Origin: Axinella damicornis
Taxonomy: Eukaryota; Porifera; Demospongiae; Axinellida; Axinellidae
DNA: 64,000 nucleotides
Direction of reading: 5' to 3'
NCBI GenBank assembly: GCA_963931865.1
Contig: OZ007507.1
Span: 15,558,450-15,622,449, forward strand
Shown here: positions 438 to 50,916 of the stretch, piece by piece
Numbering within the stretch: the stretch's first letter is position 1
Layout: each line of letters starts with the position of its first letter
The notes under the pieces: generated by a model
Databases searched by the model: none
What the model was told of the DNA's origin: nothing
The model's input: only the letters and a program-made list of their open reading frames with translations
Translations under genes and position numbers: made by a program

Positions 438-3400
438 CAGCAAGAGTGAGGGTTGTGCTCATAGGATTGAGCAGGTCAGTACAGGTGATGACTGTTCCAT
501 TCAACATGGCCTCTGGGGTGGCAGTCACCCTTAGAGTAGATGTAAAGTCAAACAGAGATGGAGTGGGGGTTGGTATGGTAGAGACGAGGGTGGTAGTGAA
601 GATTCCACGCACTGTTGGTATTCCTGCAGGATCATTCCCAAGATATCTAATCTCTGAGTTGAATGCTGGACTGTTCCACTCCAGAATGAAACCTCCTGTC
701 ACAGTGCATGTGAGTGTCACCTCCTCCCCAGGACAGATAGCACTCTGAGCACTGGAGGTCAGTGTCACTACTCCACCTGCATATGGAAAGCACACAGTGA
801 TACTATCACTCATCAAGTCTGCCTACAATGAAGTGCTAACTGTAGAATCATGTATTGCAACAGTGAATGTGTTCAGTGATAAATCAAGTCAAGGAGTGCT
901 GAAGATTACATCCCACCACAAACTATGTCACTTGCAATTACTGGTTTGTGCTTGTGAAGAAAATCACCATAATATGGAACTTAAGTAAGTTGGTTCTTTG
1001 AGCAAACATGTACGTATAATATGTAACTCTTGCAGTTAGTAGCTGAGGGTGTACATAATCATAATTTTTTTGATAAGGGGAAGGGGGTGGAGGGTGAAAA
1101 CAGTCAAAAGAATTCAGGAGGATATTTTGACTCATCCCACTCATAATGGGAAAAAAAACACATGGGGCGAGGAGGGGTGAGGGCGCTGAGCACACACCAT
1201 TCGTATTCACAATCGGGCTTGTATTCAGTGTACTAACAGTTGAAGTCCAGGACATACTGAATGAACATTAAGTGCTGATATGCAAGACGATGATGGATGT
1301 TCCTCATGAATCTACCTCTCTAAAGGCTACAATGGGGATATAGAGCTCACTCATGGACCTGCCTCTTCACTGCATTTTTCGTGTTTGTTTTTTTTATCTG
1401 CTGTGTATGTACACATTTCACGTGTAGATTGATGTCACTTGAGTTGTCACATGACCAAACTGGCTCAGACATGAGTAGCCATGAGACCTTAATCCATCAT
1501 GACAGCAATGAGGAGCAGAGATAAAGTACTGATAGAGAACAACAGCACCAGCAAACAGTAATGCCTAACAGAGCAGCTAACTGAATGAAGATGGCTGCCA
1601 AAAGAGAGAAAGTGAGTCTGTCTAAGAAGCTTTCCCAAAAGACAAAGAGACCACTGTCAGAAGGGAAGCTGACAAGGACAGAGAGCTGAAAGGTGAGTGG
1701 ATATTATGAGTCCTTCCAGGGAATGTGCCACTTCCAGAAGGCAAGTGAGTGTTGTAGTTCCCAGCTGGTGGTTTAATAAACTTGTTATTTGATTCTAAGT
1801 GGATAATTCTTCATTCTAGGGCAAGCAGACTGAGTGAATTATCGACGATTTGTACCTCTTCATTTCTGGGTAAATCTCGTTTCTCACATCATACGCAATG
1901 ACTGCTCCACCTGTCTAAAAGACATTCCGACGAGCCGTTTGCTGTGTCCTTTACATGTTCAGTGTCAGGCTAGAGATGAGGTTGATAAGTTGGAAGCAGT
2001 CATCCATAGTCTTGCAAAAGAACACCCATGGGTGGAGTGCCTTTCATGTTCACCAAAGGGAGGATGGGCACTCCCTTCTGCATTCATCTGTAAGCACATT
2101 AGCTAGATATTTGCTAGTAGATAGTCCTAGATCAGGGGCGGAGATATAGGGGGGGCAGGGAGGGCTTGAGCCCCCCAACTTTCAAAAGCAAGGGGGCTGA
2201 GCCCCCCCAAAACAACAGACTGGATGCTACTATCCCACGAGATCTAGCACTAACTTACAGCTATGTCACCTCGTTTCTTGGGGGCTGGCGTCTCTAACTT
2301 GCAGTGCAAAGCATGAAGGTGCCACGAGAGCCCATTCTGATAACTGAAAAATGAAGGCGAAAAAAATTTCCGCGCTTTGCGCGGACTGATCAGCACTACA
2401 CGCCTCTATGCACTGCCTTCAGCAGCGTACAATTGTGCTATTAGCCCCCCCCCCCCCCACTTTTTGGTAGCTGTCTCCGCCCCTGTAGATCCTTCAGTAC
2501 ACCTGGCTCTGATGCCATTGAAACTGCCGGTTTCTACTGTCAGGCTGACAATTCAGTCAATCATAGCTACTGAAATGAGAGGTTGAGTTCCCTGGGGAAA
2601 AGCCTATTATTCAAACTGGTGAGTGCCCATTCTCCATTCTCGAGTGGCAACATCTCCTACAATAGTGTCAAGACAGGCTTGCAACAATGATGCTCTCATA
2701 TGAAACTCTCCCAATTCTTTTGTGAAAGTGTAATGACAACACATGCAACTAGTCTCAGGTCATACTGGCCCGTAGGAAGCTATTTTGGGGATTGGTACTG
2801 CCCTGTTTACGTTACAAGTGCACGGTAATTTTCCTAATCATAACTTACTGAAGGTGAGATTATGGTACAGGAACTATATACTGCTACGAAATAGCTCACC
2901 TGAGAAAGGGAAGAGGAGTGCTTGCAGGAACAACACGTAAAAGCAGTAGAAAACCTGGATGTGAAGAAGCTAGGCTTAATAATACATGCTCAATAACACA
3001 TCATACCCAGAAAAGCAGGATTAACTACAGTACGTTGTGACATATTAGTGATTCTGGAAGTCCATAATTTCTGTAACCTAAAATTAGAGGAGGATCCTGG
3101 GGCTATTAGTGTCAGACTGTGTCAAGTAAAAGCTTGCAACCAAGGTTAGCTACAGTTGGCTTCACAGGTACAGTGGCGGATTTAGGAATTTGGAAAGGGG
3201 GGTTCACTGCCGAAGGTAGTGAGTGAACAGAGGCGCGAAGCGCTGATTTGTTTTCGCGAAGCGCGGAAAATTTATTTCACGGTCATTTTTCAGTTGCCTG
3301 GATGGGCTGTCGTAGCACCTTCATGCTTTGCACTGCACTGCCACTGCTCTCTGGTTTCCGTGACCGTCTGCATGACTCTTGACGTGGATTAATTCCGTTC

Positions 3401-5193
3401 CAATTAAGTGTACAAAAAAATGTTTAAATGTTTAGCCTACGTACGTAGTATACTAGTACGTACGTACGTAGCTATGTATAATTATATATAGCTAGCTAGC
3501 TACTCTGGCTACTCTACATACATAGACGGTACGGTAGCTATCTAAGTGAGTTGTTTATTAAACCAGCTGGAACTTGGAACTGAATATCTCGAAGCAACTA
3601 GGCCTCAGCCCTGGTTGTTGTTGCTACATGCCACTGCTGCATAATCATTTATGTGCCGCCAAAGGGGGTGCATTTGCACCCCCTAAATCTGCCACTGAGG
3701 TACCAACGGCACAGACACACCCTCCAAAGCACAGAATAATACTAGATAGGCTGCTAATGATATTTATGCCCTACATATACAATAAGAGAGATAACGGCCC
3801 TCGTTGGAGTTTGTACGGACTTGGCACTGTGACTGTCGCGGCACTGTGTGTACTAATTATCTCATGGTCACACATTGCTACGTAAGGGAAATGGGATATC
3901 ACGGAACACCCAAGCCTGAGGGATTCTAGCAACGACAAACTATAGTTCTTGGATACAAGTTACCAACTGTACATAAACACCACCTAGTGCACTAACTTCA
4001 CACCGAATATCACTGCTGTACCGCTGCACAATCGCTATACTACAATTTTATGCTACCCTACTGTGGGTATTCGGAACACGGTATTTCACGATTGCAAAGG
4101 CACAGTAGAGGGCTATAACCGATATGCTGGTAGATCATCGTTGCGGTCGATTCACACATTTCTGAGTGCGCTTACGTACAGTTCTACAAAAACAGTCGAC
4201 GCCGCCTGGACAGTCAGAATTTTGGCAGTTCCTTGGAGCATCCAGCTGTTGGCAACATCTATTCCAGACAGGAGAAGACTTGACTCAACCAAAATAGTGG
4301 GTGTTCCGAAATATATTCCCTTATTCCAAAATTGCTTAACTAGTTGCATTTGGGTGGGACAGCATACGCTCAGTTGACCAGATGCGGAATTGGACTGGCT
4401 CACTAGGCTTGAGCCTGGGAGTTCTATAAAGCTAGGCCTAGCCTCGTACCCAGGCCCTCACGTGGAACGCGTAAGAGGGCCTGGTGACACTTGGCAAAAT
4501 TCCTGTATGTGTACAGTCAGCATAACTGCGTAATCGATTACATTCCTTACTTGGATGCATTCGAAATCACGCAGAAGGTACCTTTTGGTGATGGCTAAGT
4601 AGAACGTCCTTGCCAAGGAGCGACCAGAGGTGAGTTTTGAAGGCTAGAACAGCGGTTTTATCAAACGGCTACACTTTTCACGGGATAAAGAATGTAATTA
4701 CTACGCAGTAATTGGAAATGGACGAACGTGATTCGCCTACCCGAAATCAAGACTGCTGAGCTCAGCACATACGGGAATTTTGCCAAGTGTCACCAGGCCC
4801 ACTTCCGCGTTTCGTGTGTGGGCCTGGGAACAAGGCTAATATAGGCCCACAGTCCAGCACTCTAGCCACTTTGTCAGCACTAGATGTGACGTCACACAAG
4901 GCATAACAAGACCGGGCCCTATACCACTAGTTCTGAGGACAACTGGGGGGGTTAGGTGGGTGTGTTTTACAGTTCTTTTGCTGAATGTAAAGGGTAGAGA
5001 AGTCCTAACAGGTGCTTCTACGCATAATTATAATGTATGCCCGCCAGCTGGTGCCTTATATCTAGCTAGCTAGCTACACTTCGAAACAGCACCTGCGTAA
5101 ACAAATAGCTAGCTATAGGCTTCCGAGGTGGTTGTGCCAGGCTAACTACAGTCACAGGCATGATGCCAGTGTGATTGCAGTTTCACTCACCAT
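438..5193 (-). CDS. Receptor A, 5' part: Ig-domain receptor (partial)
   Basis: This is a cell-surface receptor cut by the left edge of the window. Exon 1 ends with the start codon itself (ATG at 5191-5193, then a GTGAGT donor), with an in-frame upstream TGA. Exon 2 (2900-2954) gives a hydrophobic signal peptide, VFYCFYVLFLQALLFPFSG. Exon 3 (438-776, phase 1-1, 113 codons) is an Ig-like domain with CPGEEVTLTC, a LEW tryptophan and a second core Cys in GTVITC. The exon plan and sequence match receptors B and C, so FN3, Sushi, membrane and tail exons are expected beyond the edge. Intron 1 contains two hAT-like miniature elements and a fold-back element. The ligand is unknown. Family membership is well supported; completeness cannot be judged. 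Confidence 0.8.
2133..2485. mobile_element. hAT-like miniature element with 5-bp target duplication
   Basis: Terminal inverted repeats CAGGGGCGGAGA at both ends are flanked by a perfect 5-bp duplication TAGAT (2128-2132 and 2486-2490). The interior holds a run of 14 C and no coding region. Its interior aligns, in reverse orientation, with the element at 3171-3697 (shared block around the ctttgcactgca and gcgctttgcgc motifs). CAGGGGCGGA ends with 5-bp duplications fit the hAT5 type of non-autonomous element; that placement is inference. Confidence 0.75.
3171..3697. mobile_element. hAT-like miniature element with 5-bp target duplication
   Basis: It begins CAGTGGCGGATTTAG and ends CTAAATCTGCCACTG, with the 5-bp duplication AGGTA at 3166-3170 and 3698-3702. 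It is related to the element at 2133-2485 but inserted in the opposite orientation. It lies in intron 1 of receptor A. An apparent open frame at 3574-3885 is not family-like. Confidence 0.75.
3888..4325. repeat. Inverted-repeat element, class unknown
   Basis: The segment opens with GGGATATCACGGAACACCC and closes with the approximate reverse complement GGGTGTTCCGAAATATATTCCC. A third related GGAACAC motif lies inside. Size and structure suggest a miniature element, but no target duplication was identified. It is within receptor A intron 1. Confidence 0.4.
4439..4838. mobile_element. Fold-back element, TAGCCTCG...CGAGGCTA-type ends
   Basis: The ends are TAGCCTCGTACCCAGGCC and GGCCTGGGAACAAGGCTA, inverted to each other, about 400 bp apart. 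The same end motif recurs at 14188-14239, 18695-18806, 41167-41739 and 53466-53524, which defines a family in this genome. The interior is non-coding, with ACGCAGTAAT/ATTACTGCGT-like inverted pieces. Confidence 0.6.
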
Positions 5194-5329
5194 TGATACT
5201 GTTTTTCAATTCGGCCAACTGCAGATTCTTTCATAGCATGGCAGGGTGCCGGTCGGCGCTCATAACTTGCAAAACAGTCCTGCGATATAATTATAACCTT
5301 AACTGAGCCACACCCACTGGATTACTTTA

Positions 5330-6290: not shown

Positions 6291-6422
6291 AGTTCAGCAT
6301 TCATGCATGAAAGTTAGCTATGGCTGAGAATGACATCTGCAGGTAGCCTCGTTCGATCCCAGTCCATCGCCCAGCTTTTAATTCGTCGCCTATTTTTGTT
6401 CGCGCGTGAACTTAATCTGCAG

Positions 6423-6482
6423 TAGTCTCGGTACCAGACTATTCGCGCACGGCCGAGCGTGAATAGTCGGGTACCGAGACTA
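6423..6482. repeat. Short fold-back hairpin
   Basis: TAGTCTCGGTACC at the left pairs with GGTACCGAGACTA at the right, and the interior CTATTCGCGC/GCGTGAATAG also pairs. The whole makes a near-complete 60-bp hairpin. It is either a small fold-back element or a remnant of one. Confidence 0.6.
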
Positions 6483-8317: not shown

Positions 8318-11300
8318 TTATGTTGTAGGGTCAAAGAAAGAGCCAGGTTTGGGTGGCCTGGGAGGGCGATCCTTTGGAATAGTTCTCAAATATCCCTTGG
8401 GAGGAAGGGGAGGAGTAGCTGGGTCGGGTCTACAGGAAGTAAAATTCAATATCGCTGTTAATTCTTCCTTTGCTATATCAATTTTGATGAAAATAATCCT
8501 TAGCATGCATGTTTAGTGTTGGTAGTATATATTTATTCGCTTCCAGCAGTTTCATAGGTTAATGCCAGCTAGGTATACCAAATGACTTAGTCACCTCTGA
8601 ACAGGTGATGTTGCAGCTTAGCAGTCCAGGTTAATGATTTCTGTGGTTATTATTACTGGGATCATTCTCTGGGCACTGAACTTCAAGCACGGAAACTCTT
8701 GAACTATACGCAATTGTGTAAGACTTCATTACTGCTCTAGATCTTGGACGATGACAGTAGTTTGATTTACACTCTGCAAACTCCATACCCACACCACACC
8801 ATACTATCTAGTGGCCAGGTACCCAGACACACACACAAAAAAAACTGTGGAAAACGGCCGGAGTTAGCAGTCTTGATTTTGGGTAGACCAATCACATTCA
8901 TCAATCGCTAATGGCAAAGACTTTTCACTAAGCCTTCACTAGCAGCTAGTACATTCCATGAAAGCATTCGGCAAAGAATGTAATCATTTACGCAGCTACT
9001 ATGCTGACTCAGCATGCACATATGGCAAAACCTGCCAAGTCTATAAGACCCTTATAGCTACATAAAATCAGTGCTATAGTGTAGATTGCCCTAGTTCGCA
9101 CGCAGAAATGTATGCAAATTAATTATACGCCTATGCCAATGCATTCTGCAGGAATTAATAGATAGGTAAACTATAAACTGTGACCACTCACTGATCTCCA
9201 CTCTGCTGGTGTACATTGGGAGGACGATGTGGTGTTAGAGCAGCACCCTCCTGAGGTGGGAGCAGTGGAGTGATGTTCCAGTGAGGTTCCCCACTTTCAG
9301 AAACCTTGGGGAGTGGGGGGAAGAGTTCATCTTCCAGGAATAGCTTTGGAGGGATGGGAGGAGGGAGGTCATTATCATTAGTGTCCGGCAGACTTGAAGG
9401 AAGAGATTTCACCTCCATACTGGTGGAGAGAGGACCTAGAGAGTTGCAGGAGTGAAAAGATGCATTACACATATATTCTCCAAGATGGAGGCTGGCCCAT
9501 ATACAGCCAAATGTGCAATACCTGTGTTACAGGGTGTGGCAATGTCCAGTAGTGCGAGAACAGGTACAATGTACTGTAGGTAGCCCTTGTCTTTAGACAG
9601 GCAGATGAATGTAATATTGTGGCAGAATACACTGCATGGCAAGTCCCCAACACCACAGTTATTTCAACTACAAATGTATACAGTACTGGCACATCAGGAG
9701 ACATTTTATCTCACTTGGCACAGTTATCATATCTGGCTGCATTTCCTAACAAAGAATGTGTTGAAGCAATGTGGTATTTCACATGAATGTACTCATATAC
9801 CTGAGGTTACAAAGCTGGTGTGTTCATATGCAACATTGCTCTCTGTTCTCATTTCTTCCTCGTGTGGTTCCGTGCATGAAAGTCCAGCATCCACTGGACC
9901 CTGGAAACCTGGTGTTGCCGTAACTGGACCATAGCAGACATTCTGCTGTAGCTCTATCTCTTGTTTTTCTACAAGGGAGAATAGATGCTTCAAGTTTGTA
10001 AGACAGATTTGTTTACAAACAAAAACAACAACAACAACAACAACAACAGCAATGAAGCAAAAGCTGGCAGCTGCATTGGTTGCCTAAATGCATAAGTATC
10101 TTACCAATCTCATTGTCACCAGCTGCAACAGCATGTTCAATTGGACCATATGCAATATTCATCTTCATTTCGACGAGTGCATCACTGCTCGTCTCTGATG
10201 GGACGTCAGTGTACCTTGGACCAGGCTTCACTTCATCATACAATGGACCTGGCTGCTCTGGGAACCCTTGGCTCTTCTTTGTCTTTGTCACTGCATACAC
10301 ACCAACACACCATGCATGTAAACTTCAACCGGGATTTGAGTTCGACCTGAATACAACTCACTAATCTAGCCTCATTCCAAGCCATTCCCGCCTCCAGTAG
10401 TCAATAGAACAATAACCTAGCTGTGTAAATTACTTGAGGTAGCATGCAGCCTGAATGGAGCTCAAAGCTGCATGAAGTTGAAGGTATGTACCTATTATAG
10501 TGCTTGAGCTAAACTACAGCCACTAGAATATAATATTCTTGCTTCGCTTGCTGTCTGATCTTGCTGGTATACGCATGCTGAGTGATTCACAATCCTGCCA
10601 TCAACCTAAGTACATTACCTCATATAGGACTATAGCTACTTGGAGTGAACTGGACGCAACCTTTTACTTCATGGTTTGCTCCTAACAGATGCACTTGGTA
10701 GCAGACTGCAGTTCCCTTGTTCCTATTCAGGCACTACTAATTCCAGGCAATGTATTACCTTGCTTCCCTGAACACCTTTTCAATCCTACGACCACGCCAA
10801 TAACGATGACGGTAACACAGACTAACACCAGTGCACAGCCACCGATCACTGCAACAGGAATCAGCCACGGCTGCACTTGGGGTACTGGAGTAGAACCTGT
10901 GGGGATCCAAGAACAAAAGGCTTAGCCACATTTTAACACAAGCAAATGTTCATGGAACAGTCATTATGTAGGAGTTAATAGTAGACACTGCGTCTTATAT
11001 ACCGGGAAAACAAGTGCATGTATAAAAGGCCACTATATACAACCACACAAAATATGGAGCTCTGCTTTCCTTTGATGTGGTATAAAACATTACCTATTAG
11101 TGGGTAAAGAATGTTATGGTGTGTACATGTATGATTATCATTTTGTTCCTGCTTCAATTTTGAAGTCATGGCAAATTGTAATCAATGTGAAAATTTAATG
11201 CTCTAATGTTAATCCTTACAAAAGACAAAGTGCAGTGGATTCTCACCAGGTCTGGTGGAAGTAGAAATCGGAATGGAAGTAGAACTCAGAGTGGGAATAG

Positions 11301-13795
11301 AACTCGGAGTGGGAGTGGGTCCAGTTGTCTGTGCGAGGGCGGTGACATCAACTGCATGGGTTGGGTTGATATACAGCAAAGTTTGAGTGTGGAAATTTCA
11401 AAAATCTGCTGTATGCGACAGAATGCATGCAACATACGTATTGAGCATGTAATTACCTTGGAGGGGTTCCCTGCACTCCTGACAGGCTGGGTCAGGTGTC
11501 CAGGTCATGTTGATACACACACTGGTCTGTGCTGTTGGAACCAACCCTGGACTGCAGCTGTAGGTTACTGTGGACCCTTCTGCTGCACTCTGGAAGTCCT
11601 CAATGAACACTCCACTTGGAGGAATGGGCTCTCCACAGCCAGCTAAGCAACCAGTTATATACAATTGTCGAGATGATGACAATGACGTACAATATATCAT
11701 TATGCAGATCAAACATTCTACAGTGTAATTTGCAGCTAAGAGTCAACTCCTTCTCACAAGGAAATTGAAAAACGCACCAGTAGCTAAGAAGCTAAAAACG
11801 GATACTGTACGCACAGGCTCATAGAATATAACATTGCTTACTCTTGAGAACTATACCCCACCTTCAAAGTAGGTGAATGTGGTAGTTTCACTGGTTCCAT
11901 TGCAGTTGGTAGCAGTGACCACTATGTTCTCACTGATACTGTACGGCAGAGTAAGCACGGTTTGATTCACTTGTGAGGTGGTTGTCATCAAGTTGGTCCC
12001 ACTGATGGTATAGTTGTCCACTGGGGCACCTCCATCAGACTCCGGATACCCCCACTGCACAGTAACAGTGACATTGTGAGGACCATAGTGCAGGACACTG
12101 TAGCTTGGACTCCGAGGAGGAGATGGTCGACCTAAGAAAAGTGAGTCAAAAAAGATACTATTAGCATAATTTTGTAGATACATCATACAATCACACTCAC
12201 TGCAGCTGTAGTAACATTTGGTATACGCTGTGCTCACTTGTGATATTGAGAATTAAGCTCGATATTTCACTGGGTTCATCACCCAGACAAGTAACTCTTC
12301 TCCCATGTTGTGCAGGAGTGGCAGTGACTATGAGGGTTGTGGTGAGATCAGCCAGTCCTGGAGTGTTGGGGTCTTGAATCCTGTTGGTGAGGACAACTTG
12401 CGAGTCCCCAAATACCTGTACTTGCCCAATTGGACTGCTTGCAAAATAGTCTAACTCATTATTGATGTCTGGGGGAAAGAGCCAGCTGACAATAGAGGTA
12501 CGAGGTGCTGTGCAGGTATACACTACCACCTCCCCAGGACAGGCAGCACCATGTTCCACATTGGATGTTAACACTACAGCAGCTCTCCCTGCAATGAAGT
12601 ATAATAGACGTACACTACACACCAATTGATACAGTCATCTACTAATCCCCTTAGGACATGCCAATGTCCCATGGTGTTGCATCTCTTGGAATGTCAGGTG
12701 CACCCCCTGAATAGTGATTAGGCACCCACATCAAGAGTGGATACACCCATATACTGCAATTGAATAGGAAAGGCATCTTGTTGTAATGCACATCTCAACA
12801 ACAGATTTGTGGAAATGGTATGTTTGTCTCCATATATGACATAAGGGCTCTTTTACTTACTAGGAATAAAATATATATGTGCTTATTGTGTGATTAAATT
12901 TGGTATGCAATCTGCTGCAAGTAGGCTCACCTGAGAAAAGGAAGAGGAGTGCTTGCAAGAGCAGCACGTAAAACCAGTAGAAGACCTGGATGAGAAGTGA
13001 GTCATAACGATATCTCTAAACTGCACAAAGTTAGCTATACATAACTGAAATGGTGGAAGAACTCTCGCATACAACTGAAGGTATAATTATGAGCCCTTGG
13101 TAGTTTATAAGCTCCTGCTGGAACAGAGGTTTAAGCCCAGCCCAGCCCTAATGCTCTCAAACTTGTTATGCAGGGATCAGATCATCAAGACCCTGAAAAT
13201 TAGGTACAGTGAAAGTGAGGTACAGTGAAAGGTCAAGAATTCCAGAATAGCTTCCTGACCATGCACAAAATGTCGTGTTTTGTAATTCTCACTGGGCCGG
13301 TTACGCGCATGTGTGCATGTACAAGAGCAGGGTTAAGCATCAGTGCTGATGTGTCTGTGTGTGCATGTTTCAGGGAGCACTGTCTTTCCACTCAGAGTAA
13401 TGAAAGTGCAAAGCTAACGGCATTTCTGCGCTTGTCGAGGAATCTAGGCCAATGATGACACATGTCTATTCTGCATTCAGTCACAAGCGGAGCAGGAACC
13501 CCATCTCAAAGGACTACTAGAGACCTAAAATTTACTGGAGGCCAAGCTGTGCTTACAGTTTGGCAAAGAATTCTCTACAGGTAATCCTACACTGACAGTA
13601 TTGTATTTCCAGCAAGAATATTAGTACCAAACGAATTTTACAGCGCCTGCAAACGCAATAGCTATTATAGCTATTGCGTTTGCAGGCGCTGTAAAATTCG
13701 TTTGGTACTAATAGTATACACTGCTATATATAGCTAATTATACGAGGCACCAGCTACAGACATGATGTCAGTGCAGTGCTACAGCTACTCACCAT
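8318..13795 (-). CDS. Receptor B: Ig-FN3-Sushi receptor with ITIM-like and SH3-binding tail
   Basis: A complete gene of 11 coding exons and 605 codons: 13793-13795 (ATG), 12931-12985, 12238-12588, 11862-12131, 11457-11642, 11247-11351, 10759-10896, 10105-10290, 9801-9968, 9192-9435, 8318-8429. All junctions are GT-AG and the phases agree. Order: signal peptide (1-20), Ig-like domain (CPGEVVVYTC, about 20-136), FN3 (137-226, WGYPESDGG, DNYTISG), four-Cys Sushi (227-288), Thr/Ser/Pro stalk (289-323), membrane helix near 334-362, then tail. Tail tyrosines sit in PLYDEV, PRYTDV, NIAYGPI, NVCYGPV and NVAYEHT; two fit the ITIM consensus [SIVL]xYxx[IVL]. PPPIPPK, PPLPPK and PPRPPKPG fit class II SH3 ligands. 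The likely role is a surface receptor that recruits SH2 and SH3 proteins; ligand and sign of signalling are unknown. Confidence 0.9.
8840..9025. repeat. Copy of the 4.5-kb-region repeat in receptor B intron
   Basis: Read on the minus strand this stretch resembles the interior of the element at 4439-4838; shared words include gtcagcata, ctgcgtaa and gattacattc. It sits between the last two coding exons of receptor B. The ends were not resolved. Confidence 0.4.
10021..10049. repeat. AAC microsatellite
   Basis: About nine AAC units lie in the intron between tail exons of receptor B. The equivalent intron of receptor C has the longer AAC tract at 17786-17855, so the repeat appears to predate the duplication. 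Confidence 0.8.
13619..13713. repeat. Perfect 46-bp hairpin in receptor B intron 1
   Basis: Bases 13619-13664 are the exact reverse complement of 13668-13713, leaving a 3-nt loop. The arm carries the GC-rich core CAGCGCCTGCAAACGC. It lies about 80 bp inside the intron after exon 1. It could be a recent fold-back insertion or the source of a hairpin RNA; nothing in the sequence decides between these. Confidence 0.85.
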
Positions 13796-16585: not shown

Positions 16586-17787
16586 TCAAGTGGCCCCTGG
16601 GGTGAAGGGATGGAGGAATGGGTCAGGTCTACATGCAGGAGAGAGTGTACCCCACTGCAGTGAAATTTAATCTCTATTTCTTCGCAACAATACAATGTCA
16701 TGTTGGTGCAAATAAATTCCATTCATTAGCGTAAAATGACTCACCTTTGAATAGGTGCATTACTATAACTTGCAGCCTAGTCGCCTGCAATCCAGGCCTC
16801 TGATTTCCATGATTAGGTTGCTGGAATCATCCTTTCAGCACTGAACACCATGCATGGCAACTCTTGAACTATGCATGTGTATGTGCAAGACCTACTATAA
16901 TCTAGTAAGTGTGCCACAACTCCGCAACCATTGTCCAAGCCTATAATTATTGTCTTCATCTTAGTTCACAGTAACAGATATTGACAGGCAGAACTTGCCA
17001 GTGTGAGTGAGTTGAACTCAATTTTCGATGCCAACCACAGACTAAAGCTCATAAGGGTGCATGGGCTAAATGAAAAAGCTGTAGCTAGCTACAAGATGTA
17101 TTTGATCATTCACAAATGACTGCTAACATTATCAAAAGAGTTTATGAAATCAGAATCAAGTCCAGTGTAACTTTCTTAGTATTCGAACTATGACCACTCA
17201 CTGCTCTCCACTCTGCTGGTGTACACTGGGAGGAGGATGTGGTGTTAGAGCAGCACCCTCCTGGTCTGGTTTAGGTGGGAGCAGTGGAGTGATGTTCCAG
17301 TGGGGCTTCACACTTTCAGAAAGATTGGCGGATGGGGGAAAGAGCTCTTCTTCTACGTATTGCTTTGGAGGGATGGGAGGAGGGATGTCAGTGTCATCAG
17401 TATTAGGCAGAAGAGATTTCACACCCATACTGACGGGATGAGAACCTGTAGTGATGTCGGCAGCAGTGAGTGAACAAATATAGGTTACAGACATGACTTT
17501 GAGCTGATTGGTGTAGTCATGTTAGTACATGTACCCTGCACACATGATTAAGTGACTGTATCAACCCCACCAGAGGTGATGAAGCTGGTGTGTCCATATG
17601 CAACGTTGCTCTCTGTCCTCATCTCCTCCTCATGTGGTTCCGTGAGTGGAGGTTCAGCATACACTGGACCCAGGAAACCTGGTGTTGCTGTAAGTGGGCC
17701 ATAGGCGACATTCTGCTGCAGCTCTATCTCTTGTTTGCATATAGCTGTGGAGGAAGAGTGGTTTCAGTTTGTTGGCCAATTCTGCTG

Positions 17788-17855
<68 letters not shown>

Positions 17856-35037: not shown

Positions 35038-35421
35038 CTATATGATGTTGCTGGGTACTACTGCTTCATAAGCAACATTTCGGTTTAGTTCAATTTCCGG
35101 AGTGAGTGAATTTAATTGTTGCTCATGCTCAGCAGCACACGTACACGGTCTATAGTCCTTCTTCTTCCTTGCCGATATGTAGCAATGCACTGCTCCTCCA
35201 GTCAAAACCCCAAACGTGAAAGAGAGAATAGCAGCTGCAGCAGCTATGCAGATCACAGTGATTTCATTTGTTCCAGTACTGAACTGGCTCTGCGAGCTCA
35301 TCCTCTCTATCAGACAAAACAGCACAAGATAATGTGCAACAAATAACTTTACCAGGTACTAGGTAGAAGGCATAAATCAAAATGTAGCTATGTATACCTA
35401 TGCTAGACTATACTATTCCAG

Positions 35422-35468
<47 letters not shown>

Positions 35469-38400
35469 CTTCCTCCATCTAATTCACAAGAAGGTCTAAA
35501 ACCTTCATGAACAAACTCTTTGTGCACCGAACGTTTTACCTTCAACTGTCCTGATGCATATCAATTCAGCAGGATTTATAGTCCACAAGCCATCATCTGC
35601 ACATCTTGCTCTCATATGAGCCTGTCCGTTATGACATTGATAGACATACATCACAGAGGATCCTGAAGCATTACTGTTGTTGTATATCTCAATAAAGCCA
35701 TCAGTAGGTGGTGGATCACCACAATCAACTAGTTGCAATAGAAGAAACATCAGGTTATTGCGCATCATACAATTCAATTTAGCAAGCTGCATTGTGTTAT
35801 AGTAGCTAGTTCCAAATCAAAATGTTTGCAGAATCTATATAATTATATAGTGTCTGTTTCTACCACCAGACAAAATCATGACTATAGCCACGTTCACATG
35901 CCTTCACCACCTCTGGTCTTTGCAATATGTAATGCAAACGCTAAATCATTTGTGCAATCAGTATTAGTAACTCGAGTAACAGTGAACTTGATGGCATCAA
36001 AGGATGCACTGCTAGGAGAATGGAGTCCTACTTGTAGCTACCCCCGTCATGTAGCTACTGGTTTCATTTCCAAGGTTTCAAAATTTCATAATGACTGGAT
36101 TGGGAGTCCGTACCCAGAATTGCCATACAGTATACATGCAGTGGGCATTGAGCCTGTGAAGGGGGTGTCTATGGACCCCCATCCAAGATAACTAACCACT
36201 AATTCAAGCCTAACTAAAGGCCATCTCTTGGTAGAAAAAACAGTTTTGCATAACTGAATGTAATCTGTTGCCCAGAAGTGTATAGCTAGCTAGCTATCAC
36301 GTGAATAGCTAGCTACCTGGAGGTGGTTTAGCACAAGTTAAATCTGCAGGGTTGGGAGTCCAACTGCCATTTGCTGTGCATACTGCTCTTATTTGCCCTT
36401 CTGGTACAAGGCCTGGGTTGCAGCGGTAGAGTAACTCCGTGCCCTCTGTTGTACTGTTGTAGACATCAGCGGAGGCATTCACCGGCAGATCTGGATCACC
36501 ACAGTCAGCTTCACGTATAGAGGAAGGGAATTACTTGAGAATGAAATAATGTGCCACAGAGAGTTTGTAGGGTCCACTACTATTATACCTGGTACCCTGC
36601 AGAAAAGTAGAACAGGGTTTGGGCTCCACCCTTCATCCAGTGTGCAGACAGCTGTCATCCTCCCAGTTGGAAGCATACCTGAGTTGCACTGATAGAATAC
36701 CTGTGAACCTACTGTTGTACTATGATAATTCATGTTTGAAATAGAGCCATTTCTTGGAGGGAATGGGACTCCACAATCTCCTAGATAAGGTATGTGTGTA
36801 GGGAAGATGACATTAATATCATTCATCAAGTGGATATGTAAAGAAAGCTTTTAACCCACCATTCCTGGTTCATGATGTCAGTCATCCAGCAATAAACTTT
36901 TTCAATGGGTGAATTCTAGTAGGTAATTACCCCCTTTGAGGAGATATGGTCCGCCTAGTTATGCACTTGGAAATCTATTTTGTTAAGCAAGCATCCTAAC
37001 TCATGGGTGGTATATGATTGAATTGGTAACCAGGTTGCTAATATTCAACTATGTACCATTCAACTATATCATTCAACTAGGATATTTCAGTGGTGTAGGA
37101 AGCACAGCGGCCGGAGCGGCCATGGCCGCTGCACTTTTTCGGCCCCCCAAAATAAAATTTGTCGCTTTACAACCGTACGCAACGGCATACCTCACCTACT
37201 TCAATAATATGCACGGATTACGCATGTGCTAGGCGCTCTAGATGCGTGCGCACGTGTATCCTTCGAGGTGTTAGTTTGAGTTTCTCAGCAGCTGTCACTG
37301 TCAGGATCCTGAAGTAAGCCAAAATTTCTGGGGGGGCATGCCCCCAGACCCCCTTGTAAGTGTGTGCTTTGCACACACGTTGGTAGCTACTTCCATATGC
37401 TGCTAATGGCTTCTCCACTTTCTATTTGCCGGCTGAGGTGCAATACAGAGCTTCCTGCCGCTTAAAAGAAAAAGAGGGGGGGGGGGGGGGGGGGGAATTC
37501 CGCGCCTCTCCACTTTGAATTTGCTTCCTACACCACTGTATTTGGTAGAAATGATAACCCAATTCAACATTCAAGCAGTGACGTATCTACGGCAGGGCGC
37601 TTCAAGCCCAATAAATGTAGCTACTATAGTTGTAGCTAGATATTCAATTTCAAGGTTCATGACCTTTGTACATAATATTATTGTTACAAAAACAACCACT
37701 CAGTCTGATGCCAAGGGGGATTCCAGTCCAATTGACTCACAATCTCCCTGGCTTCCCACTACTTTCTTGGATTGTGCATGCATGTCACTTACTAACACTT
37801 TGTCTTCCAATCTCTAGTGTAGAAGCCTCACTTATCCCAGCACAGTTTGTTGCTGTCACACTCACAGTGTACATGGAATTAAGAGCAGCAGATGCCTCAG
37901 AACTCACAACAGAGAATGATGAATTACTTGCTGGATGACTGTTTATAGAAACTGTGTAATTATCCACTACTGCATCGTCCTGTGGATGGTCCCAGTTGAA
38001 TAAGACAGTCGAGTTGATTGGAGTACATTCAGTGAGTATGAATGTCAGGTTTTTGGGAGGAGACGGCTGGCCTGTTGGTGGAAAATACAAAGTGCAGCTA
38101 CTACTATTCTGTTTGTCCAAATCATTATACCTCTTGCAATCTCAAGCTGCTGTGATTGCTTCAAGGAAAGATATTCATAATAATAAAGGAGTGCTTGTAT
38201 TGGTGCTTTTATGCATATGCATTGCTGATGGTATTTACCTGTAATTGTTAGCTGTCTGCTGACTCTCATTCTTTGATCGAAACACTCAACCATGGCCCCA
38301 TTCAATCTCATCGGTGAAGCAATGACAGCCATTGTGGATGTCATATCTGCAAGAATCCTCATGTTTGGATTCTGAGTCACATTAGTCAATGTAGCATGGA

Positions 38401-38742
38401 ACTCTCCCCTAACCACTTTGTAGCCAATGGAATCGATACTAAGAAATGTAATTGGATCTCTTTCATCAATGAATGGTTGAATTATCCACTCTAAACTTGC
38501 TCCTTGGACAACTGTGCACTGGAATGTTACAATTTCTTCAGGACAGGCAACATTTCTCCCATGTTTCTCTAGACTAGATGTCAGAAACAAACCACCTGCA
38601 GCAACTATTTTAAAATCAGAAATAGCAGGTATGAAGATTACATAAGTCAATCAGTGCCATCGATTCACTAACCTGTTCCAGACCTGTATGACAAACAGCT
38701 TGTGAGGAAAAGTGTGGAAACAGTCAAGTGCCAGATAAACAT
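35038..38742 (-). CDS. Receptor D: Ig-FN3-Sushi x3 receptor with one ITIM-like motif
   Basis: Seven coding exons and 515 codons: 38673-38742, 38239-38595, 37793-38071, 36589-36780, 36317-36508, 35540-35728, 35038-35306. All internal junctions are phase 1. It starts MFIWHLTVSTLFLTSCLSYR (signal peptide). The Ig-like domain has CPEEIVTFQC, LEW and AMVEC; FN3 has NWDHPQDD and DNYTVSI. Three successive four-Cys Sushi domains (each opening DCG) are each encoded by one exon of 189-192 bp, so this branch gained Sushi modules by exon duplication. There is no Ser/Thr stalk exon. The membrane helix (about 442-467) is followed by RKKK and a short tail ending NVAYEAVVPSNII, where VAYEAV fits the ITIM consensus at Tyr 506. 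It is related to B and C but lacks their proline-rich tail. It diverges from a plus-strand first exon at 39332. Confidence 0.9.
35423..35466. repeat. 44-base homopolymer of C
   Basis: A pure C run in the intron before the last exon of receptor D. The length may be affected by assembly or sequencing. Confidence 0.95.
37088..37538. mobile_element. hAT-like miniature element with 5-bp target duplication
   Basis: CAGTGGTGTAGGAAGC and GCTTCCTACACCACTG are exact inverted ends, flanked by TATTT on both sides (37083-37087, 37539-37543). It contains a 20-base G run at 37476-37495. It lies in the receptor D intron between FN3 and the first Sushi exon. Confidence 0.8.
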
Positions 38743-43326: not shown

Positions 43327-46300
43327 ATGGAGTTGATGAAAGTGTACCTGTATGCATTGTATTGTGTGGCGAGCGTGAGTGAGTTGTAACCAGATCACTT
43401 ACCAGTGGAGAAAATTTACAGCAAACTCGTCTATGCAGGGCTTGTTCTCGCTCGCCCCAATTATACACAAACGTACATGCCCTAGAATGCTACTGTACAG
43501 TATAGCAGGAAATGTTGGTAGGTGTAAATGTCTGAAATTTTGTAGGAGGTGATCATTCAACACCAGGCTCTCTTTCTCTGCTCCCCCCATATGAGCCTGG
43601 ATAAGGGTAGCAGGAAAAGTATTTACACATTGGTATTTATTCTTCTATCAAATAGATTCAGGTCTGTGGTTTACTCGTATTGATGGTGGTAGGCAGATCG
43701 ATTTCTCCAGGTAAGGTTTGCCATAATTGTGTGCACATATATAGGTTCAAGTGGACTTGCCAGTTGGCACCGTAAATATAATACACCTCAATGTGATTAG
43801 GATTTTGTTTCCACTTCAGCAATGTCTTGTGTGATCCTGAAGTCCAGTTTGGATGGCACGTTTGCGTGCTCTGGAGAGAGTGTGGTTTACTCATGCGAAG
43901 TCCACAGTGCTATTGCGGTACAATTTTCATCTGACCACTTTGATGCTGACCCAATCCGATTTACAAGAACTGATGAAATTCTTTTTAGTGCCACACGAGG
44001 GCCATTTCAGGCAATTCTTACTGATGTTAACAGTATTGATGTGTTCACAGCAAACTTTTCAGCCCAACTTAGTGTGGCAGTGACAATGGATTTGAATGGG
44101 TCAGTGATTGAGTGCAGTGGTGGAGGAGAGGCAAAGAATACCACCTTACTTGTCAGTGGTGAGAGTATTATTATAGCTACTAGCTACTGTATTGGCTACT
44201 GTTGCATGCTCCTTGATTTCTATTTGGTGCAAGTGTCCTGCTCTAGATTGTCGGTAGGACGGACGTCTTAGTAGTTTAGAATGTGACCAATCAGTCTGTT
44301 GGCTCACTGTGTGTGGGAAGTAGCTCTGCATGCAACAACCACCACAGCAAATGTGCCTGAACAGCAACTTCATAGACCAACACGACTGATTGACTGACTC
44401 ACTGACTGACTCTTTACCCAGATACACTGTTACAGCACTGGCATTTATACATGAATAATTACATGTGTCTCCGGACATTCTGGAAACATATAGTGGGCAT
44501 TATCAGCTGCTTTTGACTGCGTTGTACACTAACAATCAGAGGCATAATATGATGCTGACTGTGTACAAGTCTATTTACATAATTTTCACTATGCTCAATT
44601 TAGTACTTCATAACTGTCTCTCTTCCAGAACGTCCCAGCCCTCCTACTGATGTGAAAGTATCAACCCAGGAGGCAGTGCTGGAAGAAACACAGTGTCGTT
44701 CAAGACCGGTATCCATCAGCTGGCATTCTCCTAGTGCACAAGATACACTGTCCTACACCGTTACCATTACAAGTAATACATCAGCCCCCTATAGAGAAGA
44801 CACTAGGGTGCCCATGCTGAATGTTATGTTAGAAGTGGGAAACCACACCGTGAATATCACCGGAATCAACAGCAGATGTGGCCTAAGCAGTGAAACTGCC
44901 TCTACCGTATATGAATTACAAGGTACTAGTTTACAGCTTTATATGATCGTTCAACCATCCATTGTTTCAGTACGGATGATTTGATCCAGTTATCATCCTA
45001 CACAGTTAAGGCATGAGAAAGTTGAATTCAAAGAGGTCAGATTGTCATAGAATTAGCTAATCTCAAACTGCAAGTCTTAGAAATAAGTTATTGTTTCGAC
45101 TTCCTCACCTAAGTGTATGGGTGGTAACCAGGTTCCCACCACTAAAAAATGATGGGGAGCCAGGTACAACATGTAATGTGGTGTCGGGGGTAGACATGAG
45201 GCAGACATGACTTACTGAATGAATCTAACAGTTTGGCGCTTGGTTTATAACGTTTGCTCCATTAGGGCAGTACGTAGGTTACCTGATATACGTTGTTCTG
45301 GACTCCAGGGTCAAGGTATCTCTCGTGTGATAAAATGTACCCTGTCGGTGGTGGGAGCATGAATGATACTGTTGGGTGGGATATTGTTATTGCAGTAGAA
45401 TAAGAACTGTGATCATGGGATGTTTGTTCATCAGTATTTCATATTTGTTTGTCAGTTGACTCACGCTGTCCTAATGATGTACATGTATCACCACAAGACG
45501 AAGCCAACGATATTGATGGTAAGTACTATCCTCTTCACTGTCCTCTTCACAGCATGCATATACTGATGAGTAGGAATTGCCCTGTGCCAGTATTTCTCTA
45601 TATTTTCAATTTGACTGATTACACTCCTGGTAGGGGAAAAATTGTGCCGCGTAAATATAACATTTTGTTTGAGTACTTAGGATTGGCCTACAGAGATTCT
45701 GACTACACCGCCGTGATCGCTATCATGTACTGACCTGAATGTAAAAATGTGGTGCAGAAACTCACCTTGGTGGTGGAGATATGAGCGCTTTTGTCTCGCC
45801 GCTGGCTGCCATTGCTCAAATGCTCTCTGACTTCGGCGGTGGCAGTACCGTTCTTAGGAAAGGCACATGAAGATTCTGACCACACGGCCGTGATCGCTGT
45901 CGTTCACTGACGCTTACATGCTGAAACCCACCGTGCTGGCTCAGTTTTGAGTGCTGTAACAATTCTTGTCTTCCCTTTGGCCGCCATTAGGCAATCGATT
46001 GACTGAGCGTGGTTGCCACGTGGCACGTGCGTTAATTGGAATGAGTTGCAATACCTAGCTTGCGCTACCAGCAAGTTGCAGCCGGTTGCAACGGCTGCTA
46101 CCAGGAGTGCGGTTGCCCCTCGAATGTCTTGAATAATTAATTTATCTCTTCTCTATTATGCCAAGCTCATCTTCAATACCCGTGCTTAGCGGGAAATGTC
46201 TTATCAATGAATGGAATATCTTAACATTGCCCACTTAATTGTTCGGAGCAATCTTGATAAAGTGGCCCAGAATAGAATCCAGATAATCACATGCGGCATA

Positions 46301-49300
46301 TTTCTATTTAGCTACATCACCCCCTGAGAGGCTATCACAGAGGGTTCGCATTATGGCTATCAGTAGGCAAGAGCTTATTTAAACCCGGTCCGGCGGGACC
46401 AACAGCTTAATTTTCCCTCCAAAGGGCAGGAAGGTAGCTACCCCTTCTTCTCAATTTCTGGGTTAGGTTGAGTGTGCCTTGAACCAGAACTTGGGACCCG
46501 CCTGGGATCCACAGTCCAGCACTGTAATCACTGCAACCTGCTCACTCAAGGAAGTTAGCTTGCAACTTTGTATCCATGGTATCGTATTTTAGCAGGTGAA
46601 CATTAGTCGAATCATGGATAATAGATCACGCGGAACTGGATTTGAAATGCACGTTTACGGGATTGAATGCGGGTTTCGCGTCTAGTATGCTGTTACCAGT
46701 CGTTACTCAGGACTGTCAGGAGTGAAAGTTGCCACTTTGGGCATACACCAGTTCAAGACTGATCGAACGATACGAAAGGTAGAGCCTCAGAACGGTTTCC
46801 GTGTGACACCAGAGGTGCAACAGTACACGGGTATCACAATTCAGGGATACATCCGGGTTTTTTGGACAGCCCAAGCCTGCTTTTATCTACGACTCAGGTG
46901 CAAAACGTACCGCTTTGGGCATAAACCGGTTGAAGGCTGATCCGACGGTACAAGAGGTAAGCCCCAGAACAGTCCCTGTGCAGTACCAGAGGTACAACAA
47001 AATACCAGCGAAACCCGCATTCAATCAAAGGCCATGCCGACACTCCATACATTAAGAATAGGGTGGTGCACGCGTTTCCAATCCAGTTCCCCGTGCTCTA
47101 TTATCCATGGTCAAATCCCCATGCACTCTCTAATTTTGTAACCACAAACTTGACCTTGAACAATGTAGCTACTTCTAGTATTGTGGTCTCAAGTTGAACA
47201 CATGCAGCTAATGTATGGGACTTTTCAGGAGGATTTTCATTCTTGTGGGGGAAGCGTCTTGACTTCATAAATGTAAATATCCATGGCTGGGGGCATGTCA
47301 CTTTTGGCAGCATAGCAAGTGCATTTCGGTCAGAATCGTTTTGCAGGTTGCTTGGAGTTTCAAAGTTGCATTTATGGTTTCCATTATATGACTTACTCCA
47401 GAAGCCTATAAACCTCCGTTAGTAGGTGGGTGTGTACAAAAACAAGTCATGAGTAATCCAATCCACGAAAATATTTATGACCCAAAACAATAAAACGCAA
47501 AAATCTTACAACACAAAAATTTCCAGATATGCAGTACATGTATAACTGGAAAAGTAATAGCTGCTTTTATTACTGAAGTCTACGTAGTCACTATGCTTGC
47601 TGTACGTATGTGGTCACACAGCAGAGCAGGAGAGAGCCTGGGGATGAAGCGATGTAATTAAAAGTAACTATCAACATTTCTCACCACGAAAAAATGAAGT
47701 TTGATCTACCCACAAGGCTGACAATTGTACTGTGCTGATCTGGCATTTTGACCATTGTTGTCCCTGAGGGGTCTATCAGCAGTATCAGGAGCGCATGAGC
47801 TGCCGAAGGTGCCGAAGGAGCGTCGAACTAGTATAGACATGTTGTAGTCCTTCACACCTTATGGTTATATGGAAGACCTTGTGTGGTACTGTGTAAGTGG
47901 CTGCTAATAGTATTCACATTTTGCCGTGCGCACCGTAGGGTGCACCAATCTTGGCGCAATCCAGTAATGATGTTAGTGGATAGCATCAACAAAATAAGAC
48001 TTGTGACCTTGCTACACTTGCACTTTCTGTATTCAAGATTGTGAGTTAAGATAGTTCTTGTTTAGTTCACTCCTCACAGTTGTTAACCACGTACAGGTAG
48101 CATCCTACTTAATAATTAAATTCCTGAGTGACAAGTTGCTCTATGGCTATGCCCCAAACCTTTTCCCTCAGTGTGGAATGGGGTCTATTATATTGGAATT
48201 ATATATTGTGATGCTTATTTTCCACAGATTCTAACCGATGGACAACACCGGTATTTTCCGTTGTAGGATCCTTAATATTTCTTGCACTTGTTGCAGCAGT
48301 ATTTATTGTTGTTATTGTTGTGTATATTAAGGTATGTAAGTAATTAAGAGTAATTTGGCTGTATGTTTTCCTTGACCATTATGATCTGATATCAGTAAGA
48401 AGATAACAGTAATTATTGAAATAACCATCACTATGTATAGTTACGTGCTTTAATAGGATATTGTACAGTCATGCAATAGGATGGTATAGTGTGAGTTCAG
48501 TGTTGGTGCATGTTGTCTTTTGGCTTTTCTCAAAGTAGGATTGATAGATCTCCTGTTCAGGGTGTAAATTAACTAATGCCTGAAATTTGTTGTGAAGGAA
48601 AGAAGCTATTGGTGCATCAGTTAATAATTTTCCATATTTGTGAATCAAGTGTCATTTTGTATGTGGGGTCCAGGTTCTAGATAACATTGTATAAGGAACT
48701 TATACAAAAGTTAATCAGTTGTGCCTAGACAGGCGTATGAGGCGATATGGGATTAGTATAAATGGCACGAGATTTATGTGCACATGTGAGTGATAGGAAT
48801 CACAGAGTCGGTAGACTCTGTATGTAGGGATACGACGTACACGCAATATAGCTATGCTAATACAAAAGAATCTCTCCAAAATCAGAAACGGTACACTTAT
48901 AAGTCTTTATAACCACATAGCTACCGTTCATCTTCGAGTGTTTTCATGACCAACAAGACTCCTCGCGTCGCGAAAAACCGTCGCGAAAGTACCGCACCAG
49001 GTACTCGCAAAACGGGCAAATTGTTTTTCTTTCTTCTTCTTCTTTCTTCTTCTTTCTTCTTTCAGACGGGCTAGCTCAACGTCGCCTCAATCCCTCATGA
49101 TGGTTTTCGCACGAAACAGCAGCATTTTACACCGAGCAGTGCAGCAGCCCATCGCTTTTTCGCAACCTCCAAGTTTTCACCAGGCGGCTACCAGAGGAGG
49201 TTGGACACGCTTGACCTTTACACTAATTGAAATTCTACATCTGGAGTAAGAAGCATGTTTAGCCAATTTTGAGGTTGGTCCCCCTTATTATTAATTTTTT

Positions 49301-50281: not shown

Positions 50282-50700
50282 CACTGGAAGCACTCGTGAA
50301 TCTGGGTACTTGCTCCTAACTTCGTGATAGCTGTATCTTACACGCATAATGCTATAGCTGACTGTGGAGTCCCAACCCTCTTCCCAAATATGGGGCCAGA
50401 ATACGACAGAGGGGTCACAAGCATGCACACTACCATTGCAATATGATGGGTCCACACTAGCTGCAGGGTAACATCACATGCAGCAATAATGTAAATTAAT
50501 GTGGAGAAGATGGGAACAGGAGCTCTAACCCAGTCTGTGGGAATTCTGAATCAGTAGAAAGTATAAGTGAAGAAAAATGAGAACTGCTGATTTTTATAAT
50601 CAGGAGATGATTGATGTCTTGCAAAGCTAGTCTGTATATAGCAGTGATGGTTTGTTTTCATAATCCTAGTCTGCTGTGCCCTGCACTTTCTTGATTGCAG

Positions 50701-50916
50701 TATTACTTGGCGAAAACATCTGAAAGGTCATTTTGGTGTGAGGAGCATGACCGAGCATCCCCAAAAATACCACAGGGCATGCAGTTCAGTGTGTTACAAA
50801 TTAAAGCCGTCTCTCTGGAGGAGAGGTGTTATATTTCACTCCATGCAGCAACCATGGTATACACATATCTACTAACAACAATTAAGTCTTATATACCTTG
50901 CATCCATGGTGGTTGA
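50701..50916 (+). CDS. Possible alternative last exon of receptor F
   Basis: A strong acceptor (CTTTCTTGATTGCAG) opens a 71-codon frame in the same phase 0 as the membrane exon donor at 48331. It begins YYLAKTSERSFWCEEHDRAS and ends at TGA. Splicing 48331 to 50701 would skip the exon at 50198 and give a longer tail with several tyrosines. An internal GTATAC donor after AATM is also possible. Transcript data are absent. Confidence 0.4.
   Translation, partial: YYLAKTSERSFWCEEHDRASPKIPQGMQFSVLQIKAVSLEERCYISLHAATMVYTYLLTTIKSYIPCIHGG

What the first reader, a model, noticed from the sequence alone, without database searches (positions are those of the whole stretch)
438..50916. Cluster of five Ig-FN3-Sushi receptors with ITIM-like tails, a candidate self/non-self recognition complex
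Seen: five paralogous membrane receptors in 50 kb, three in tandem, sharing exon plan and tail motifs (NVAYGPL, NIAYGPI, NVCYGPV, NVAYEAV plus PPPIPPK). Known: ITIM motifs recruit SH2 phosphatases, and tandem Ig receptors with such tails occur in cnidarian allorecognition complexes and vertebrate immune clusters. Inference: this is an equivalent recognition cluster, here with Sushi modules and SH3 ligands in the same chain.
Basis: partly seen in the sequence, partly recalled or inferred. Interest (0 to 1): 0.85.

Follow-up and report, generated by a model that had tools for sequence, protein, structure and literature searches.

The report
Sponge cluster of ITIM-tailed immune-type receptors
A sponge chromosome carries a tightly packed family of dozens of likely cell-surface recognition receptors whose inner tails look like the "off switches" of animal immune receptors, which makes it a testable candidate for how sponges tell self from non-self or friend from foe.

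The parts
438..776 (-). Gene D: Ig-like exon (rest of gene D lies left of the window, to about -5.3 kb)
   Evidence: AlphaFold/fold search
9188..9435 (-). Gene A: last tail exon (t3) with PPPIPPK, ends in stop
   Evidence: conserved in 7 of 7 long-tail genes
9801..9968 (-). Gene A: tail exon t2, NVCYGPV (ITIM-consistent) and NVAYEHT
10105..10290 (-). Gene A: tail exon t1, NIAYGPI, PLYDEV
10759..10896 (-). Gene A: transmembrane exon
   Evidence: hydropathy 2.98; model
11247..11351 (-). Gene A: Ser/Thr/Pro-rich linker exon
   Evidence: model
11457..11642 (-). Gene A: Sushi exon
   Evidence: Pfam PF00084 E 1.6e-4
11862..12131 (-). Gene A: FN3 exon
   Evidence: family HMM E 1.5e-36; Pfam silent
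12238..12588 (-). Gene A: Ig-like exon
   Evidence: family HMM E 1.1e-37; Pfam C2-set_2 0.03 (below cut-off)
17198..17445 (-). Gene B: last tail exon (t3) with PPPIPPK, ends in stop
17571..17744 (-). Gene B: tail exon t2, NVAYGPL (ITIM-consistent) and NVAYGHT
17928..18077 (-). Gene B: tail exon t1, NVAYCPT, PVYAEV
18260..18388 (-). Gene B: transmembrane exon
   Evidence: hydropathy 3.38; model
19304..19462 (-). Gene B: Ser/Thr/Pro-rich linker exon (predicted)
28792..28983 (-). Gene B: Sushi exon
   Evidence: Pfam PF00084 E 1.7e-7
29085..29360 (-). Gene B: FN3 exon
   Evidence: Pfam PF00041 E 3.1e-6
31112..31444 (-). Gene B: Ig-like exon (67% identical to that of gene D)
35038..35306 (-). Gene C: transmembrane plus short tail exon, NVAYEAV (ITIM-consistent), ends in stop
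   Evidence: membrane stretch seen in the sequence
35540..35728 (-). Gene C: third Sushi exon
   Evidence: family HMM E 6e-19; Pfam 0.05 (below cut-off)
36317..36508 (-). Gene C: second Sushi exon
   Evidence: Pfam PF00084 E 1.5e-9
36589..36780 (-). Gene C: first Sushi exon
   Evidence: Pfam PF00084 E 7.5e-9
37793..38071 (-). Gene C: FN3 exon
   Evidence: Pfam PF00041 E 1.4e-4 (below cut-off); family HMM
38239..38595 (-). Gene C: Ig-like exon
   Evidence: family HMM E 9e-41
43820..44158 (+). Gene E: Ig-like exon
   Evidence: family HMM E 1.6e-32; paralogue 59%
44629..44922 (+). Gene E: FN3 exon
   Evidence: AlphaFold and Foldseek; 2 matches in the genome at E <= 0.01
48224..48340 (+). Gene E: possible transmembrane exon (weak; not found beside the paralogue)
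   Evidence: hydropathy 3.2

Best explanation
A demosponge receptor gene complex encoding single-pass membrane receptors that recognise a ligand with a divergent N-terminal Ig domain held out on an FN3-Sushi stalk, and signal through tyrosine motifs. Proposed working: ligand binding clusters the receptor; a Src-family kinase phosphorylates the tail (the membrane-proximal Y[E/D]D[I/V] of short tails resembles a Src SH2 ligand, recalled); the N-[V/I]-[A/C]-pY-G-P-[V/L/I] motif then recruits a tandem-SH2 phosphatase and dampens activation, while long-tail members also bind SH3 proteins through PPPIPPK. Many tandem copies would give many specificities. Shown: gene anatomy, clustering, motif conservation, pieces of a likely SHP-type gene in the genome. 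Inferred: ligand, phosphorylation, inhibition, role in self/non-self or microbe recognition.
For: Spliced models for A, B, C; D across the window edge. Two Ig queries together give 61 distinct exon places, 47 of them in C3:14.70-15.61 Mb (lower bounds). Tail-exon query: 40 matches at E <= 1, 24 of them in C3:14.716-14.950 Mb. A distal gene read in full has Ig-FN3-five Sushi-membrane-tail ending ENIAYGPVQN. Long tails: first t2 motif fits ITIM in 7 of 7, PPPIPPK in 7 of 7. In 13 tails (paralogues, some partial) 12 of 40 tyrosines fit ITIM against a shuffle mean of 1.7 (maximum 8 in 2000 shuffles), and 12 have both N at -3 and ITIM against 0.09 (maximum 2). Public homologues: 32 of 76 examined show a terminal N[VI]xY motif by pattern, 30 of these with I/L/V at +3. 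SHP2 queries hit SH2 pieces at C10:52.6-54.2 kb (58-74%) and phosphatase pieces at C10:48.6-49.3 kb, same strand. Short public contigs join FN3-Sushi-Sushi-membrane (P0001), three Sushi (P0005), FN3-Sushi-Sushi (P0036) in one frame. dN/dS of Ig exons is below 1 in 31 of 33 pairs, so the exons are under constraint.
Against: No expression, phosphorylation or binding data for the window genes. No transcript joining the Ig exon or the tail to the rest was found. Gene by gene the ITIM count is weak against shuffles (A p 0.013, B 0.23, C 0.085, D 0.04). Two of the seven short tails read in this genome end in NIAYGPA, which does not fit ITIM. The second conserved t2 motif never fits ITIM. Two of the three SH2 pieces at C10 contain a stop in the matched stretch, so the SHP-type gene is likely, not proven. 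No convincing signal peptide. Gene E lacks a known tail. The two public copies that could be matched are nearly identical to this genome (136/136 and 98.2% of 168 residues), which gives no sign of high polymorphism, though neither covers an Ig exon.
Confidence: 0.6

Rival explanations
1. Allorecognition complex: the receptors are polymorphic histocompatibility receptors that bind partner molecules on touching tissue and decide between fusion and rejection, inhibitory ITIM signals marking self.
For: Architecture and clustering parallel Botryllus FcoR (Ig-Sushi-ITIM, 53 loci, polymorphic haplotypes; PMC12065747 section 11) and hydrozoan ALR complexes (22 genes on one Podocoryna chromosome plus scattered ones; PMC13119343 passages). 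Here 47 Ig exons in 0.91 Mb, 5 more out to 13.94 Mb and 9 at scattered places. A multi-gene block appears duplicated.
Against: No allele data for Ig exons. Whole-exon dN/dS is not above 1 on average (Ig 0.48 in D type, 0.71 in A type; 2 of 10 A-type and 0 of 21 D-type pairs above 1). The long-standing sponge candidate is the aggregation factor, a different family (PMC5450542 and PMC12065747 passages).
Confidence: 0.3
2. Innate immune or symbiont-recognition receptors, equivalent in use to fish NITR or mammalian leukocyte receptors: a broad germline set that samples microbes or damaged cells and restrains phagocytes.
For: Tandem expansion of diverged copies (nearest other Ig exon 85% for the D query and 76% for the distal query), ITIM-consistent tails, Sushi stalks. 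NITRs: 44 genes in three medaka clusters, the majority ITIM-bearing (PMC2442602 passages).
Against: No activating counterpart with a charged membrane segment was seen in the membrane exons that I read (by eye, not searched for); no expression data.
Confidence: 0.35
3. Adhesion or cell-sorting receptors whose conserved N-[V/I]-x-Y is a PTB-domain (NxxY) or endocytic (Yxx-hydrophobic) motif rather than an ITIM (motif meanings recalled).
For: N at -3 is very constant: 22 of 40 tail tyrosines are NxxY (shuffle mean 1.7, maximum 6), only 12 of them also ITIM; 19 of 40 are Yxx-hydrophobic (mean 8.6, maximum 17). The t2 motif N[VI]AY[GE]H[TS] is conserved in 6 of 7 long tails without an ITIM +3 residue. 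Two short tails have A at +3.
Against: In public short tails and in the first t2 motif the +3 hydrophobic residue is nearly constant (30 of 32; 7 of 7), which NxxY binding would not need.
Confidence: 0.25

Closest known systems
Botryllus schlosseri fester co-receptors (FcoR), fuhc locus
   Same: [quoted passage not shown] tens of loci in a few clusters (PMC12065747 section 11, read in full).
   Different: FcoR has two C2-type Ig domains where this family has FN3 and further Sushi; FcoR is paired with fester genes and lies in the locus tied by genetics to fusion; here no pairing, polymorphism or function known, and a different phylum.
Hydractinia/Podocoryna allorecognition complex (Alr/ALR)
   Same: Large cluster of allorecognition genes plus scattered copies; ITIM/ITAM-type motifs reported in candidate genes (PMC12065747 and PMC13119343 passages; IgSF membership from PMC11999971 passages; Huene 2022 not held).
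Teleost NITR and mammalian leukocyte receptors
   Same: Tandem Ig receptors, inhibitory forms with (S/I/V/L)xYxx(I/V/L) (PMC2442602 passages).
   Different: True V domains and no FN3/Sushi (partly recalled); NITRs are held to be restricted to bony fish (same passages).
Geodia cydonium Ig-containing proteins (Ig receptor tyrosine kinase, adhesion molecule)
   Same: Sponge proteins with Ig-like domains (PMC12018476 and PMC11999971 passages).
   Different: One is a receptor kinase; the genes modelled here end in a tyrosine/proline tail without a kinase.
Sponge aggregation factor
   Same: Earlier sponge allorecognition candidate; one grafting transcriptome saw no enrichment for it (PMC5450542 passages).
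   Different: Secreted proteoglycan-type family (recalled); no comparison of domains was made.

Membership tests
ITIM-bearing inhibitory receptors | Cytoplasmic (S/I/V/L)xYxx(I/V/L) | tested here: met
   A two, B one, C one, D one; first t2 motif 7 of 7 long tails; 5 of 7 short tails read in this genome. Consensus as printed in PMC2442602. None found in E.
ITIM-bearing inhibitory receptors | Single-pass type I membrane protein with Ig-type ectodomain | tested here: inconclusive
   Ig-like fold and one membrane exon for A, B, C, D (C's membrane stretch by eye); no convincing signal peptide.
ITIM-bearing inhibitory receptors | Phosphorylated motif recruits SH2 phosphatase | not testable with these tools
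   Only pieces of a likely tandem-SH2 phosphatase gene were found.
Cnidarian allorecognition (Alr) family | Sequence and fold homology to Alr domains | not tested
   Paper not held and no Alr sequence at hand.
Cnidarian allorecognition (Alr) family | Large genomic cluster of IgSF receptors | tested here: met
   47 Ig-like exons in C3:14.70-15.61 Mb.
Botryllus FcoR family | V-type Ig, Sushi, two C2-type Ig, one membrane span | tested here: not met
   One Ig exon, then FN3, then Sushi in A, B, C, D and L062.
Any histocompatibility system | Extreme allelic polymorphism co-segregating with fusion or rejection | not testable with these tools
   One assembly; the two matched public stretches (not Ig) were 100% and 98.2% identical.
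Sponge Ig receptor tyrosine kinases | Cytoplasmic kinase domain | tested here: not met
   Models A, B, C end in stop codons after the tyrosine/proline tail.

The most novel reading that the evidence does not exclude
This is the sponge histocompatibility complex: a polymorphic, gene-content-variable ITIM-receptor complex that controls fusion and rejection. It would show that Ig-type receptors with SHP-type inhibitory signalling serve allorecognition in sponges, cnidarians and ascidians, by descent or by repeated recruitment.
Probability: 0.28. Interest if true: 0.93.

Novelty: new variant of a known kind. Interest (0 to 1): 0.74.

Why it matters
A 2025 review states that the allorecognition candidates of sponges, cnidarians and ascidians are not conserved and that these systems arose by convergent evolution (PMC12065747, passages). 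A sponge complex of clustered Ig-Sushi receptors with a conserved ITIM position and a likely phosphatase to read it would put a similar receptor logic in all three. It also names a single region in which sponge self/non-self recognition can be tested by genotyping and grafting. My ten paper searches (listings seen) returned no title or abstract start that describes such a complex in a sponge; the library holds open-licence papers only, so this is no proof that it is unpublished.

Tried and rejected
Ctenophore origin: considered because of genome size; set aside on GC (39.1% in Mnemiopsis, PMC11797021 passages, against 40-46% in 4-kb steps of the window) and because the genome has silicatein exons with Ser in place of Cys ([DG]QCGASYAF, L059 and L060) beside an ordinary cathepsin (GQCGSCWAF, L061). 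Species not identified; freshwater sponge is only a guess from memory.

Receptor tyrosine kinase: rejected for A, B, C, whose frames stop after the tail. Kinase domains were not searched for in the rest of the complex.

Hypervariable Ig under positive selection: not supported. Mean dN/dS is 0.48 (D type) and 0.71 (A type) for Ig, against 0.30 and 0.75 for FN3 and 0.27 and 0.66 for Sushi. Loops are somewhat more variable than strands (entropy 0.73 against 0.53, one-sided p 0.036, seven D-type sequences).

Gene E tail: no N[VIL]xY on the plus strand from 44 to 51 kb other than one at 50,177, whose peptide recurs on the other strand at 49,935; in the stretch beside the paralogue the clear matches are Ig and FN3, the rest short, repeat-like stretches.

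Homologues: spliced gene A gave none at E <= 0.01 among 7997 candidates; spliced gene C gave three, P0001 and two general Sushi proteins, one of a snake. The p85-type SH2 query was a mis-chosen control and says nothing on SHP.

Full report
What was checked. The window is C3:15,558,450-15,622,449 of a 226-Mb genome in 120 contigs. Silicatein exons with the Ser-type active site show that it is a siliceous demosponge; the species is not known. Open frames, Pfam, motif scans and splice sites were read over the window.

Gene anatomy. Gene A (minus, 12,588-9,188) reads Ig, FN3, Sushi, Ser/Thr/Pro linker, membrane span, and three tail exons t1-t3, 549 residues without a signal peptide. Gene B (31,444-17,198) has the same plan, its Sushi and membrane exons about 10 kb apart with a 1,282-residue open frame between them. 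Gene C (38,595-35,038) has three Sushi exons and one membrane-plus-tail exon. The joins used are phase 1 to phase 1 and leave the frame open (a first try with some edges off by a few bases failed). Gene D has its Ig exon at 776-438; FN3, Sushi, membrane, t2 and t3 follow at -2.1 to -5.3 kb in the flank. Gene E (plus) has Ig and FN3; nothing further is sure. Of 45 minus-strand receptor exons listed for the test in 204 kb, 45 have a suitable splice pair, against 50% of random windows.

The complex. Left of the window the same gene types recur: four long-tail genes (G1, G2, G3, G5), then a C-type and an E-type gene, in the order seen in the window, so a multi-gene block was probably duplicated. 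G2's Ig exon is split between frames, a likely pseudogene. Genome-wide, an Ig query of D type gave 45 matches (42 on C3) and one of a distal type 57; merged they are 61 places, 47 in C3:14.70-15.61 Mb, 52 in C3:13.94-15.61 Mb and 9 elsewhere (lower bounds). In these lists no Ig match lies on C3 to the right of gene E, and two broken tail exons lie at 15.80 and 15.83 Mb, so the window is probably the right end. A short-tail query gave 40 matches at E <= 1, 24 of them in C3:14.716-14.950 Mb. One distal gene read in full (L062) is Ig-FN3-five Sushi-membrane-tail, the same kind as gene C.

Tails. Long tails (7 genes, G2 among them): the first t2 motif, NV[AC]Y[GS]P[VL], fits ITIM in 7 of 7; the second motif N[VI]AY[GE]H[TS] is kept in 6 of 7 and never fits ITIM; PPPIPPK (a PxxPxK SH3 ligand form, recalled) is in 7 of 7. 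Of seven short tails read in this genome (C, its paralogue, L011, L012, L013, L028, L062) five fit ITIM and two (L011, L013) end in NIAYGPA and do not. Across 13 tails, NxxY (22 of 40 tyrosines) is commoner than ITIM (12 of 40); both exceed shuffles, but paralogues are not independent, and single genes are weak. In public homologues found with a distal Sushi-tail query (75 proteins), 32 of 76 examined proteins (these 75 and P0001; many hold Sushi exons only) have a terminal N[VI]xY found by pattern and 30 of these have I/L/V at +3. The pattern fixes N and V/I, so only +3 is tested, and some of these are paralogues or copies of one species. The hydrophobic +3 residue is what an SH2-phosphatase motif needs and an NxxY motif does not, which is why ITIM is preferred for these positions and left open for the other.

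Reader enzyme. Queries of human SHP2 pieces hit one place in order and on one strand: SH2 pieces at C10:52,608-54,186 (58, 74 and 68%; two of the three with a stop in the matched stretch) and phosphatase pieces at C10:48,554-49,280 (68 and 58%). This is a likely SHP-type gene; its model was not built.

Transcript evidence. P0001 (292 residues, JGI contig of 2,381 bases) runs FN3-Sushi-Sushi-membrane without a break; its FN3 and two Sushi pieces match separate exons at C3:15.11, 15.14 and 15.25 Mb at 70-86%; its membrane part matched nothing in that list. P0005 and P0036 join three Sushi, and FN3 and two Sushi. Such joins are expected of cDNA; that these contigs are cDNA is inferred. None of the three joins Ig or a tyrosine tail. 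P0013 and P0032 (ENA) match this genome at 136 of 136 and 98.2% of 168 residues, intron stretches included, so the same species is in public data.

Evolution. Nei-Gojobori dN/dS is below 1 on average for every exon set computed. Exons of one gene pair differ in dS (A against G3: Ig 0.11, membrane 0.24, t2 0.36, t3 0.30), which suggests exchange between copies. There is no clear sign of diversifying selection between paralogues.

Comparison. Botryllus FcoR is the nearest analogue read (section 11 of PMC12065747): Ig, Sushi, membrane, ITIM or Yxx[ILV], tens of loci in polymorphic clusters. It fails as a family for this case because FN3 and often several Sushi stand where FcoR has two C2-type Ig domains. 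Hydrozoan complexes are similar in layout (PMC13119343 passages). NITRs share Ig and ITIM (PMC2442602 passages). What it works like: an ITIM-type recognition receptor complex, moderately supported. What it is a member of: no known family, on present tests.

Verdict. Observation partly confirmed and extended; allorecognition is a hypothesis that this locus makes testable. Novelty: new variant of a known kind.

Noticed in passing
G000:C5:0.5-1.45 Mb: A large cluster of FN3 exons in the same stretch as tens of protein-tyrosine-phosphatase exons: apparently a greatly expanded family of FN3 receptor phosphatases.
   Followed up: no
window 22858-26706 (-): A 1,282-residue open frame inside the Sushi-to-membrane intron of gene B, without a Pfam match; may be a mobile element.
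   Followed up: partly
window 52837-59753 (-): Ankyrin-repeat exon and, downstream, an ion-transport-like exon (E 0.006, below cut-off): perhaps a TRP-type channel gene next to the complex.
   Followed up: no
window 51402-51746, also about -34.0 and -16.5 kb: A coiled-coil-like frame present three times in this region (85% and 71% identical on the opposite-strand reading).
   Followed up: no
window about 10015-10050 and 17785-17860: TGT/ACA microsatellites at the same place, in the t1-t2 intron, in genes A and B.
   Followed up: no
G000:C3:15,482,452-15,482,773: Ig exon of long-tail gene G2 is split between two frames: likely pseudogene.
   Followed up: no
G000:C3:10.217 and 10.245 Mb: Two further tail arrays, with three PPPIPPK stretches each, some 4.5 Mb from the complex; their ectodomains were not read.
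   Followed up: no
G000:C2:12.05-12.18 Mb: Tandem cluster of silicatein exons.
   Followed up: partly
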